Below are positions 29,110-33,563 of a DNA stretch of 64,000 nt, one piece after another. Each line of letters opens with the position of its first letter. Within the stretch, counting starts at the first letter, position 1. The DNA lies in the NCBI GenBank assembly GCA_963576785.1, contig OY756140.1, forward strand, positions 1,984,001-2,048,000. Reading direction: 5' to 3'. The notes beneath the pieces were generated by a model that saw only the letters and a list, made by a program, of their open reading frames with translations, was not told the origin of the DNA and did not search any database. Position numbers and translations under genes: made by a program. Source of the stretch: Chlorophyllum brunneum. Taxonomy: Eukaryota > Basidiomycota > Agaricomycetes > Agaricales > Agaricaceae.

Positions 29110-31087
29110 CTAGCAACTAAACGGTCGGCCCACGATATGGGTCGCATAAGCAACAGTGATTAGCTACGAAATACCGAGATTTAGGGACAAGTCGTGCTTT
29201 AGGGATAACGCTGCTTGCTACTCACCTTAATCGAGACGTACGTTCCAGCAACACATATAAATGCACCCGAGATGATGGTGAGAATGGAAACAAGAAACAT
29301 GACTGGCCGCCTATACAGCCCTACTCTCCCCTCGAACTGGACGGTATCGTACAACCAGAAGAACCCTGCGAGACCGTATGTATACCATGAAGCGAACAAG
29401 GCCGCCGAGATCCCGATAAGGTAAGAGAAGATTGGTACAGCTATGGCAAGAATAAAAGCCAGAGTAACTCCAACGAAGCACAGGAGGACCCAAATAGTCC
29501 ACCCCAGGTATGTGTGCGTATATATGTGCCGGGAATGGCGGAAGAAACGGACGAAGACCAACTTGGCAGCGGTATGAGAGTATAGACCTCCTGCACTGCA
29601 AAATGTTAGGATAACCACAAATATCGGAGAATCGCCAGCTGACATGAGAAAATTAGGGAGGGCTATCCCCCAAGTCGCCTTCGCCCATTTGGCCGGTAAT
29701 GAAAACAATGCCGGTGACGCGACGGTATTACCGACGTATACATAACTGCAAGGTTTTCGTTCGGTTGAGCCATGAACAATAATGAAGATCCTTACATTAT
29801 CACGGCGAAAAGGGTATAGAACACGGTGGCAAAACCTTGGAGACACCACGCGGCCTGTCCATTGTGAAGCTGAGAATGGTTCAACAACCGGAAGACCTTT
29901 TACCTTCATAGCATCTTGGGGTCTTCGCATTTCTGATATGAGAATGAAAAACCTATCACAATTCAGTCAACTATTGAAGCCGTAACTCCAGAAAGTGAAA
30001 GTCACATGAAATGACCTGAGGTGTAAGTCAGTAATGTGAAAAGCCAAACGTCAAGAATTTTCGTTGAATTCGATCACCTACCAGCGTAAGAAAATACCTA
30101 AAAAAAACTGCTATAGCCGACCGCGAAGACACGAATCAATTACTCACTGGGTTAGTTATCGCAAGAAACGCCTGATAGAAATTCGTCGATACAGCTGCTG
30201 AAAGAGTGCGATCCTTCACTGGATTGAGGCCAGCAGCAATCATAGCCAGTACACCGGCTAGGGTGATGAGGGCGACGCTCAGTAATCCCAGCCAACTCAG
30301 TCGATCTAATGTTCGAGGCAGGGATAGCGCGAGGGTCGCGACGGCGAAGATAAGAAGAAAATACATTGCGCAGAGCCCGTTGTCGGATAGAGAGGATAAG
30401 GCTTGTTGACCTGATAAAAGTTGCGAGCCCTGCCTCCCCGAGTGAGTGTCTCTGGGATTGGTCACAGAATGGGAGCTCACAGTTCCGCAGATTGCGAATA
30501 TAACGGTTCCCGCAGAAAGTATTTCTCTGAGAATGGGACCTCCCATGATCAGGCCCGCATCTCCCCTGCCGGGTACCATGAGAGCAATGTAATAAGGAAG
30601 GAAGGCGGAACTCACATATTGTGTACACTAGGATGATTAACTTTGAAGTCGATGAGTAGCTTCGCAGTGAACAAACCAAAGACGCCAAGGAACACAATCT
30701 GACAAACAGGGTTAAAGCTCTGGGACGTGTAGTCTTATCGAAGCGCACCAGAATCACCGCAGGAACAATACCTGAGCGGCACATATATTAGCTGTTGATA
30801 ATAATGAAGCCAAGCACCATTCGTACCAACAACTGCCAATGCCGAGGGAAGTGATAGCATTCCGTTGCTGACAATCTCTGCTATCATTAGCAAGGAAACG
30901 AACTAAATCTAATGCCTGAGTGTGTGTGATAACGCTGCACATGGACACCGACCTGCCAGCTGAGAGTCTTGTAGTGAAAATCATGATCCGGTTTCTCGAT
31001 GAAAACGTCTGTGGTGTCCTTGTTGTGCAAAGACGGAGTGTCGCTGAGCTCCGCGGGATCTGCCTTCAGAGAGTGTGATTGTTTCAT
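29110..31087 (-). CDS. Amino acid transporter (AAAP family, Mtr-like)
   Basis: Multi-pass carrier of the Aa_trans family, related to fungal neutral/aromatic amino acid permeases. The N-terminal tail is hydrophilic (HSLKADPAELSDTPSLHNKD) and runs into DHDFHYKTLSWQ before the first membrane segment. Later blocks: LIMGGPILREILSAGTVIFA, LCAMYFLLIFAVATLAL, a histidine-poor loop, SEMRRPQDAMKAL, YVYVGNTVASPALFSLPAKW, GGLYSHTAAKLVFVRFFR and LIGISAALFASWYTYGLAGF. The final exon after a GTGAGT intron gives LITVAYATHIVGRPFSC and stop at 29110. About eleven membrane segments and nine or more introns. An in-frame ATG at 31129 is an alternative start. Unrelated in fold class to the APC permease at 5.3 kb. 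Confidence 0.88.
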
Positions 31088-31451
31088 GGATAGGTTTATG
31101 GGAAAGGCAAGAATGTCCCAAGCATGCAAAGGGGTATTTATCTTGGAAGATTATAAATAGCCATGAGGGCATCCAGTGGGGTAGGGGTCATTTGTGGCGA
31201 GCGATATTCATTTGTGAAGCCGAAGTTGGCTATGCACAAGGACTGTGTTGTGCGTAAAGGCCATTGAATGAAGACACTAGAGTCGGATTGACTCGTGGCG
31301 AGGTGTCGCTGGGTATATCTCGACGAAACGAACGTGGTCAGAGACTGGCTGATCTCATGAGCCAATTAGTGTCATTTGCTGCGTCTCATCACATGGTAGC
31401 TGGTGATAGGTGGCGAAACCCACAGCGCGTTCCCTGATCATGAATTTGATC
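31088..31451. other. Promoter side of AAAP gene and left flank of the transposon
   Basis: No gene supported. Ends with the 8-base target-site copy ATTTGATC at 31444-31451. Confidence 0.5.
31444..31451 (+). repeat. Target-site duplication, left copy
   Basis: ATTTGATC; identical to 32263-32270, direct orientation. Confidence 0.85.
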
Positions 31452-31504
31452 CGAGGGGCTGTCATCCGAACACCCACCCCCGGGGTGGTCCGTGGAAACC
31501 TTCC
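31452..31504 (+). repeat. Left terminal inverted repeat
   Basis: Pairs with 32199-32262 in inverted orientation; the right arm carries 12 extra bases and a few substitutions. Confidence 0.85.
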
Positions 31505-32198
31505 ATTTATAGATATCACGCGCGCGTCACGCTGATGCGATTGATGCGATTGACCTCTAACCAATGGCTAACATCCTGCTGCACCTCATGTCTGGAATGG
31601 TTTCATGTGTACTAAATAAATCTGTGCTTTTCTGCCCACTATCATGCCCACCAAACCACAGCCTCATATCAAGCATAATACTGATGTTGTCCTCAAAGAC
31701 GGAGTGACGATCCGGACAAATTACGATGCAGAAAGCAGCCGGCATATTGCAAGATATGACATATGTGAAGAAACCAATGTTAGACTTCCTGCTACGGCCG
31801 ATCCGCATGTGTTAGAAACTCATTGAGATGCATGCAACAAAAACAGCTTAGGAAGAACCCGAGGTTGAACATGACAAAATTTAGATCCACGGAAACAACA
31901 GCCAACGGCGCACCCAATACTGGCATTCTGTGTTACAGACCCGTTGGTCCCACACAGGCAAAAACCACCACCAACAGTGATGATTTCCCAACCAAAACTC
32001 TACCTACAACTACGAATAGTGGTAAGGGGAAGCAGGAGAGAACAAATACTGAGTCTAGTATTGTTTTTCTGGGGTAAAAGTTGCGGAACTAATGTGTTGT
32101 ACTCGAAATCACTCTATACTGTTAGCACTCTGTTGTTATCAATTCAATATCATCTGATGTGACGAAGCTGTGACTAGGGGCAGTTGCCGTCCACAGAA

Positions 32199-32262
32199 GG
32201 AAGGTTCCCACGGACCACCCCGGTGGGTTGATTTCACGGCTTGTTCGGGTGACGGCCCCTCG
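32199..32262 (-). repeat. Right terminal inverted repeat
   Basis: Inverted partner of 31452-31504. Its outer 21 bases differ from the left end by two transitions. Confidence 0.85.
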
Positions 32263-32270
32263 ATTTGATC
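32263..32270 (+). repeat. Target-site duplication, right copy
   Basis: ATTTGATC; identical to 31444-31451, direct orientation. Confidence 0.85.
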
Positions 32271-32435
32271 TGACGGCATGCATGTATTGTGACAATCCAT
32301 CACAGTTCTCAAGCCGCCACTCACCACCCTCTTTCTCGCATTGATTCATTGGGGCCTCCACTCACGTTCCTATACTGCACATCACTAAGGTGAGGTCTGG
32401 TCACTATCTCCCGGCATAGAGGAAATTGTGTCTCA

Positions 32436-33563
32436 ATGGATAGGACTAGGATGGGTGCAAGGCGGCCCGTTACACAAGCAATGAGCCATTTCGTAGAGGA
32501 TCTCATACCCCTCATTCTGAATAGTAACGACCACTGGTGGGACAGAGATCTTGCTCGTCTCGCTCTGGTCTCGCCCGCGTGGCTGTACTATGTCCGCAGA
32601 AGGCTCTATGCTTCACCATCGCTGTACTCATTCTCCGCTTGCGTCGTCATTGCCCAAACGTTGGGTTCCAACCCTTATCTTGCATCCTTGGTGCAACATT
32701 TAGCACTTCGGCCAATCCACACTGGCAGCTCTCGAAGCTCCTCCAAAGACCGTGTGGCCGTCCGGACGCTTCTAGCTTTAGGAGGCTTGCGGAGTCTTAT
32801 TCTGGGTGGTGAATTAGCCATTCAGTCGGGGCGCTTTCTCGGTTTCGTCACTGCCGCAGACACACTCACACGATTGCACGTTGATGGCACATCGCTGTGT
32901 GCATCTTTGACGTCGCGAGCATCTCTTGAATGGTCTGAAGACCTCCGATTCAGATTCCCAAAACTCAGGAGGCTCAAACTTACGGACCTGGAGATCGATA
33001 TTGACCCCGCTTTTACCTCTCAGCCTCTCCGGATGGATGAGCTTGTCCTCGAGAATGTCAGCGTTATCAGCGGCTTTCTCTCATACATCGTGCCAGAGGG
33101 CTCAGTCCTTGAGAGATTATGTATCCGCGCATCCAGTGCTTGCGAGTACGACGAGCACATTCGGATGATTCTTTACTCTTCAAGTGTGCATACGCTGAAG
33201 TACGAGGTACAGAAACCCTGTCCATCCGATGGTTCGTTTTTGGAGCCTGAAGGAGCCCCGGCCCGCCAGGTGTCAGATCTTCGCCACTTGGAATTGCATG
33301 GTCTGCATGTTGATAATGGGGTGCTGGCTTCAGTGCAACAGTGGTGTCCCGATATTGAAGAATTAGTTGTGGCTGGTCGATCGATTCGCCTCACATCGGA
33401 AGACTGGGGGAGGTACCTTGGCTCAGGGGCGTTACCCTCATTGCGGTGTCTCACGGTGACACGAGGCACCAACCACCCTCCGTATAAGCCATGGCATGCC
33501 AGTGCAGTGAATTTCTTGACTCAGGCCACTTCTACTCGTCGCATCGAGTTTCTCTCACTTTGA
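32436..33563 (+). CDS. F-box/LRR-like protein
   Basis: Intronless, 375 residues. The N-terminal VEDLIPLILNSNDHWWDRDL then ARLALVSPAWLYYVRRRLYA looks like the F-box-like opening common in Agaricomycetes, followed by irregular leucine-rich repeats (LRRLKLTDLEIDID, RMDELVLENVSVIS, LRHLELHGLHVDNGVL, LPSLRCLTVTRG). Such proteins are presumed substrate adaptors of SCF ubiquitin ligases; that is family-level inference and the F-box match here is weak. The start at 32436 is the first ATG; MSHFVEDL at 32481 is a good alternative. The hAT-like element ends 174 bases upstream. Confidence 0.75.
   Translation: MDRTRMGARRPVTQAMSHFVEDLIPLILNSNDHWWDRDLARLALVSPAWLYYVRRRLYASPSLYSFSACVVIAQTLGSNPYLASLVQHLALRPIHTGSSRSSSKDRVAVRTLLALGGLRSLILGGELAIQSGRFLGFVTAADTLTRLHVDGTSLCASLTSRASLEWSEDLRFRFPKLRRLKLTDLEIDIDPAFTSQPLRMDELVLENVSVISGFLSYIVPEGSVLERLCIRASSACEYDEHIRMILYSSSVHTLKYEVQKPCPSDGSFLEPEGAPARQVSDLRHLELHGLHVDNGVLASVQQWCPDIEELVVAGRSIRLTSEDWGRYLGSGALPSLRCLTVTRGTNHPPYKPWHASAVNFLTQATSTRRIEFLSL

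What the first reader, a model, noticed from the sequence alone, without database searches (positions are those of the whole stretch)
31444..32270. Intact 811-base hAT-like MITE with exact 8-base target duplication
The ends are inverted repeats (19 of the first 21 bases match, two transitions) and ATTTGATC flanks both sides directly. Each arm carries a further GC-rich palindromic block (GGGGTGGTCCGTGG). No transposase is inside, so it must have been moved by a partner elsewhere. The exact duplication and near-perfect tips suggest a fairly recent insertion between an amino acid transporter promoter and an F-box-like gene.
Basis: seen in the sequence. Interest (0 to 1): 0.8.

Follow-up and report, generated by a model that had tools for sequence, protein, structure and literature searches.

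The report
Single-copy nonautonomous transposon in a mushroom
An 811-base piece of what is probably mushroom DNA has the matching ends and the 8-base duplicated landing site of a cut-and-paste transposon that makes no enzyme of its own; it is an ordinary kind of element, unusual only in that no second copy and no obvious parent were found in the genome.

Summary
Window 31452-32262 (811 bp) lies between exact copies of ATTTGATC. Its tips match at 19 of 21 positions, and each arm holds an inner 25-base block alike at 24 of 25. No other exact-8-base-repeat pair in the window exceeds 13 of 21; 40 Markov windows reach at most 15. It is a nonautonomous terminal-inverted-repeat DNA transposon.

'hAT-like MITE' is only partly supported. 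One copy was found in the 38.9-Mb genome, so the multicopy feature of a MITE is not met, and no partner with these tips was found. hAT is the best guess (about 0.6): 8-bp duplication, about 20-bp tips, hAT domain matches at four places, three of them with stops. KDZ and MULE profiles found nothing (the KDZ search had no control). The tip and target fit hAT patterns only in part. Recent insertion could not be tested: arm similarity is no clock and no empty site was available. Short nonautonomous hATs are reported active in another mushroom (PMC9674265). New member of a known kind; low interest.

The parts
31444..31451 (+). left target-site duplication ATTTGATC
   Evidence: read directly; scan
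31452..31472 (+). left tip of terminal inverted repeat, CGAGGGGCTGTCATCCGAACA
31480..31504 (+). left subterminal block CCGGGGTGGTCCGTGGAAACCTTCC, 28 nt in from the left end
31505..32198 (.). interior (GC 0.444) without recognisable gene or RNA; no other copy found in the genome
32199..32223 (-). right subterminal block CCGGGGTGGTCCGTGGGAACCTTCC, 39 nt in from the right end
32242..32262 (-). right tip of terminal inverted repeat, CGAGGGGCCGTCACCCGAACA
32263..32270 (+). right target-site duplication ATTTGATC
   Evidence: read directly; scan
32436..33563 (+). neighbouring F-box/LRR-type gene (ORF as listed); the likely start is the ATG at 32481, since many close homologues are about 359 aa long, which leaves about 218 bp between it and the element
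   Evidence: PF24758 E 8.4e-7; 31 homologues at E up to 0.001, best 76% identity; ATG present; choice of start inferred
30136..30615 (-). exon-like ORF of the neighbouring amino-acid-transporter-like gene
   Evidence: PF01490 E 1.5e-5, 24.3 bits against a cut-off of 25.6

Best explanation
The element is a nonautonomous cut-and-paste DNA transposon, most likely of the hAT superfamily. A transposase made by a full-length relative would bind the 21-bp tips and the inner 25-bp blocks, cut the element out of a donor site, and join it across an 8-bp staggered cut at ATTTGATC, giving the duplicated target after repair. Shown: tips, inner blocks, exact 8-bp duplication, no recognisable transposase gene inside, one copy found. 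Inferred: that the inner blocks are transposase-binding sites, that the transposase was a hAT enzyme, and that the partner has been lost from this genome or was never in this strain.
For: Insertion signature far above chance. The arms keep tip and inner block while the stretch between them differs by an 11-nt indel and four substitutions, and the sequence further in diverges, as expected if only binding sites are conserved. The genome carries hAT dimerisation-domain matches at 4 places, all over the curated cut-off, 3 of the 4 with stops inside, and one of these belongs to a family with a 94-95% alike copy on C7. MULE gave 0 (3 of 14 control genomes rang, all prokaryotes) and KDZ 0 (no control rang). 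Fungal hATs with 18-20-bp inverted tips and 8-bp duplications are described, the latter without target bias in one species (PMC6710886, passages). Nonautonomous hATs of 597-631 bp, which the authors conclude are moved by a 3,396-bp autonomous one, are described in Marasmius oreades (PMC9674265, passages, section 7).
Against: No hAT copy with these tips was found. In the C8/C7 hAT family the borders of the shared sequence are unlike CGAGGGGC, though its true ends are not established. The duplication ATTTGATC fits nTnnnnAn (PMC10368747 and PMC8961557 passages) at position 2 but not at position 7. The recalled hAT tip consensus YARNG (from no call) is missed at position 2. Arms of 53-64 nt are longer than the 10-25 bp usual for hAT (passages). 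Two further hAT-linked profiles, PF14372 and PF04937, gave nothing, though no control rang for either.
Confidence: 0.6

Rival explanations
1. A nonautonomous element of another superfamily that makes 8-bp duplications, such as Zisupton/Dileera (KDZ), a Mutator-like element with short arms, or a P-type element (P-type recalled, from no call).
For: Zisupton makes 8-bp duplications and so does the Dileera-type family Zisupton-1_PGr (PMC12730594 passages). Mutator-like elements make 8-9 bp duplications, and two of 14 mosquito families have arms under 60 bp (PMC5225508 passages). The arms here reach 53-64 nt, and the tip and target fit hAT patterns only in part.
Against: KDZ and MULE profile searches of this genome found 0, though no control rang for KDZ and only prokaryote controls rang for MULE; a partner outside this genome is not excluded. 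P-type and Merlin profiles were not searched.
Confidence: 0.33
2. Chance inverted repeat beside a chance 8-base repeat, or a host regulatory inverted repeat.
For: One copy found; the interior has no recognised feature.
Against: Best of 40 Markov windows 15 of 21 against 19 of 21 here, with a second block alike at 24 of 25 and the duplication exactly at the tips.
Confidence: 0.03
3. A true MITE family whose other copies were missed because they are diverged or the assembly is incomplete. (This overlaps the first two readings and is scored on its own.)
For: The DNA search states that it can miss common words and scores only the best candidates. Only 100 of 148 loose tip matches were listed, and those 148 exceed the 119 of the reversed-pattern control. 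The 21-mer tip has 4 matches outside the element against 0 in its control. The interior is mildly AT-rich (GC 0.444 against 0.502 in the window).
Against: Tip and inner-block patterns showed no second pair of tips. At 40 other tip-like places none had a convincing inverted partner with an 8-base duplication within about 1.5 kb. Two of the four 21-mer matches lie in an inverted 85% duplication that runs on past the tip on both sides, so they are not element ends.
Confidence: 0.1

Closest known systems
[quoted passage not shown] passages, section 7)
   Same: Short inverted-repeat elements without a transposase (597-631 bp) in a mushroom; the authors conclude that they use the transposase of an autonomous hAT (MarorhAT-10, 3,396 bp).
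   Different: Those have a partner with closely matching tips in the same genome, and MarorhAT-4 and -11 have more than one copy; here one copy and no partner found. Their tip sequences are in a figure that was not available to compare.
hAT elements of Pseudocercospora fijiensis carrying histone H3 (PMC6710886, passages)
   Same: About 20-bp inverted tips and 8-bp duplications.
   Different: About 9.5 kb long, with a transposase domain, 99 complete copies; tip letters not compared.
Zisupton/Dileera (KDZ) elements of fungi (PMC12730594, passages)
   Same: 8-bp duplications, found in basidiomycetes.
   Different: No KDZ transposase match in this genome (no control rang); tips not compared.

Membership tests
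nonautonomous TIR DNA transposon | terminal inverted repeats directly bordered by a target-site duplication | tested here: met
nonautonomous TIR DNA transposon | no transposase gene inside | tested here: met
   two ORFs of 83 and 84 aa (ORFs of at least 80 aa), no Pfam family over cut-off
MITE | many copies sharing tips and interior | tested here: not met
   one copy found; the searches give lower bounds
[quoted passage not shown]
   interior GC 0.444, arms 0.679 and 0.656, against 0.482 and 0.526 in the flanks and 0.502 in the window: only mildly AT-rich
hAT superfamily | 8-bp target-site duplication | tested here: met
   ATTTGATC twice, exact; shared with other superfamilies
hAT superfamily | target pattern nTnnnnAn (reported for Hermes and hobo, Ac-type) | tested here: not met
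   T at position 2, but T instead of A at position 7; one site only, and a fungal hAT family shows no target bias
hAT superfamily | tips shared with an element coding a hAT transposase | tested here: inconclusive
   4 hAT domain places; none of the four 10-kb stretches holds CGAGGGGC (the 7-mer CGAGGGG occurs 3 times in L017 and once in L019), and no convincing own tips were found; related genomes not available
KDZ (Zisupton/Dileera) | KDZ transposase in the genome or in a sharing element | tested here: inconclusive
   0 matches, but no control genome rang
Mutator-like | MULE transposase in the genome or in a sharing element | tested here: inconclusive
   0 matches with 3 of 14 controls ringing, all prokaryotes; a partner outside this genome is not excluded

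The most novel reading that the evidence does not exclude
The element is an orphan of a transposon family not yet described in mushrooms, with CGAGGGGC tips, paired inner blocks and 8-bp duplications, whose transposase is absent from this genome, so that it came in by crossing or horizontal transfer, or its partner was purged after a single jump.
Probability: 0.15. Interest if true: 0.35.

Novelty: new member of a known kind. Interest (0 to 1): 0.15.

Why it matters
If the partner were found, the element would be a small marker of recent or past transposase activity in this mushroom lineage, sitting between two genes that could show an effect on expression. As it stands it is an ordinary insertion of low general interest.

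Tried and rejected
MITE family: whole-genome searches with the whole element, the element with its flanks, the 21-mer tip (up to 3 mismatches), the inner block (up to 3), a 14-mer tip (up to 1) and a 17-mer tip (up to 3) found only this element plus scattered tip-like matches. Against the reversed-pattern control: 21-mer 6 (2 of them the element) against 0; inner block 2 (both the element) against 0; 14-mer 15 against 24; 17-mer 148 against 119. Part of the 17-mer excess comes from unrelated repeats that carry one identical match each (see Noticed in passing). Of the four other 21-mer matches, the two on C12 lie in an inverted 85% duplication of about 2.6 kb that runs through the tip on both sides; the ones on C9 and C11 have no partner end. 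By eye, in the 100 of 148 rows listed, no other inwardly facing pair lies within 10 kb on one contig. At 40 distinct other tip-like places a script looked inwards about 1.5 kb for an inverted partner with an 8-base duplication (up to 1 mismatch): none scored 10 of 17 or better; one (L067) scored 9 with a mismatched duplication and was dismissed. A full-length partner of 3-5 kb would not be seen in that 1.5 kb. L010 and L011 were in that script but are not centred on tips and were dropped from the count, as were repeats of the same place. A blastn of the element against the other fetched loci, at E up to 0.5, gave one 21-base match (L074, E 0.15), taken as chance.

Partner: the four hAT domain places were read as 10-kb stretches; around the domain no exact 8-base duplication had good inverted tips (best 11 of 16), and none holds CGAGGGGC. 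The hAT family with copies on C8 and C7 has borders of shared sequence unlike CGAGGGGC. KDZ, MULE, PF14372 and PF04937 profiles: 0 each, with ringing controls only for MULE.

A profile of the two arms was built but could not be used on this genome. RNA: Rfam found 0 in the window at the gathering threshold and 0 at E up to 1 in 31400-32320; no tRNA gene, by a search with the bacterial code. Viral contigs: one record with an exact match to a 19-base tip pattern, taken as chance and not read. Empty site: no second copy of the flanks was found in this genome, and no relatives are held.

It changed the MITE row on AT-richness from not met to inconclusive (the interior alone is GC 0.444), and I also changed the Mutator-like row to inconclusive.

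Full report
The window lies on contig C2 of a 38.9-Mb, 14-contig genome. It is probably an Agaricales mushroom: the F-box-type neighbour has homologues at 66% identity in Leucocoprinus and Leucoagaricus and at up to 76% in unnamed proteins. This placement is an inference from one gene.

The sequence reads ATTTGATC, then 811 bases beginning CGAGGGGCTGTCATCCGAACA and ending with the reverse complement of CGAGGGGCCGTCACCCGAACA, then ATTTGATC again. Aligned arms share 19 of 21 tip positions, differ by an 11-nt indel and four substitutions, then share 24 of 25 positions of an inner block, after which similarity fades. In a scan of the window for exact 8-base repeats bordering inverted tips, this pair has 19 of 21 and the next best 13; 40 first-order Markov windows gave 12-15. 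It is therefore not chance.

Inside there is no recognisable transposase: the two ORFs of at least 80 aa have no Pfam family over cut-off, there is no Rfam match, and no similar DNA was found elsewhere in the genome. GC of the whole element is 0.476 against 0.482 and 0.526 in the flanks and 0.502 in the window; the interior alone is 0.444 and the arms 0.679 and 0.656. To the left, on the minus strand, is an amino-acid-transporter-like gene (one exon-like ORF, just under the curated cut-off); to the right the F-box/LRR-type gene, whose likely start codon at 32481 (inferred from homologues of about 359 aa) is about 218 bp from the element.

Copy number. Six whole-genome searches found this copy only. 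Loose tip matches elsewhere are scattered: 15 against 24 in the reversed control for the 14-mer, 148 against 119 for the 17-mer, and for the 21-mer 4 outside the element against 0, two of which lie in an inverted duplication running past the tip. The 40 places examined have no convincing partner end within about 1.5 kb. The tool warns that its counts are lower bounds, and only 100 of 148 loose matches were listed. So 'one copy found' is the claim, not 'one copy exists'. Since high copy number is among the typical features of MITEs (PMC3942097 passage), the term does not fit on present evidence.

Superfamily. 8-bp duplications point to hAT first, but also to Zisupton/Dileera and Mutator-like elements. 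For hAT: tip length, duplication length, and hAT dimerisation domains in four places, three of them with stops. Against: the target does not fit nTnnnnAn at position 7, the tip misses the recalled YARNG consensus at one place, the arms are long, and the one hAT family compared between copies (C8 and C7, 94-95% alike) has borders unlike CGAGGGGC. Profile searches for KDZ and MULE were empty; only the MULE search had ringing controls, all prokaryotes. Two further hAT-linked profiles were empty without controls. I put hAT at about 0.6.

Mechanism. In Hermes, a hAT element, the ends are capped by imperfect 17-bp repeats and carry subterminal repeats that BED domains of the transposase bind unequally at the two ends (PMC10368747 passages). 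The present anatomy, with tips and an inner block kept while the spacing differs (28 against 39 nt from the ends), suits that picture. It is inference: the AAGT motif reported for Hermes was not looked for here, and the arms fold no better than shuffles.

Age. Arm similarity is no clock for such elements, because the two ends need not be identical when they insert (general knowledge). The intact 8-base duplication sets only a weak limit. No related genome was available for an empty site, and no second copy of the flanks was found here.

What is known. Short nonautonomous hATs of 597-631 bp, which the authors conclude are moved by a 3,396-bp autonomous element with a single copy in one nucleotype, are documented as active in Marasmius oreades (PMC9674265, passages and section 7). 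The present element is a new member of that known kind, without its partner. A paper search for miniature inverted-repeat elements with hAT in agaric basidiomycetes listed 2 papers; I did not search for this exact sequence in print.

Noticed in passing
L077 (C2:945751-946250), L078 (C6:1390496-1390995), L079 (C6:2496915-2497414): Three stretches are 88-90% alike over about 176-187 bases ending in an A/T-rich tract, after which they diverge, as the 3' end of a retroposed (SINE- or LINE-like) family would; CGAGGGACTGTGATCGG within it is a likeness to the tip with 3 mismatches.
   Followed up: partly
L058 (C1:2439-5455), L080 (C2:1000-1300), L081 (C4:2950-3230): Stretches near the starts of contigs C1, C2 and C4 carry the same tip-like 17-mer and are 98-99% alike over 281-301 bases, with a second partial copy in the C1 stretch: probably a subtelomeric repeat.
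   Followed up: partly
L019:3197-5783 (C8) and C7:537397-540068: A hAT family with two copies 94-95% alike; the C8 copy adjoins a stretch, retroelement-like by my reading of its ORFs, that is 86% alike on C10 (L016).
   Followed up: partly
L008 and L009 (C12:157212 and C12:190980): Two sequences 85% alike over about 2.6 kb in opposite orientation, about 34 kb apart on C12; one frame of L008 is open for 259 codons through the tip-like match, so it may be a duplicated gene.
   Followed up: partly
window 31533-31553: A short tandem repeat, TGATGCGATTGATGCGATTGA, inside the element near its left arm.
   Followed up: no
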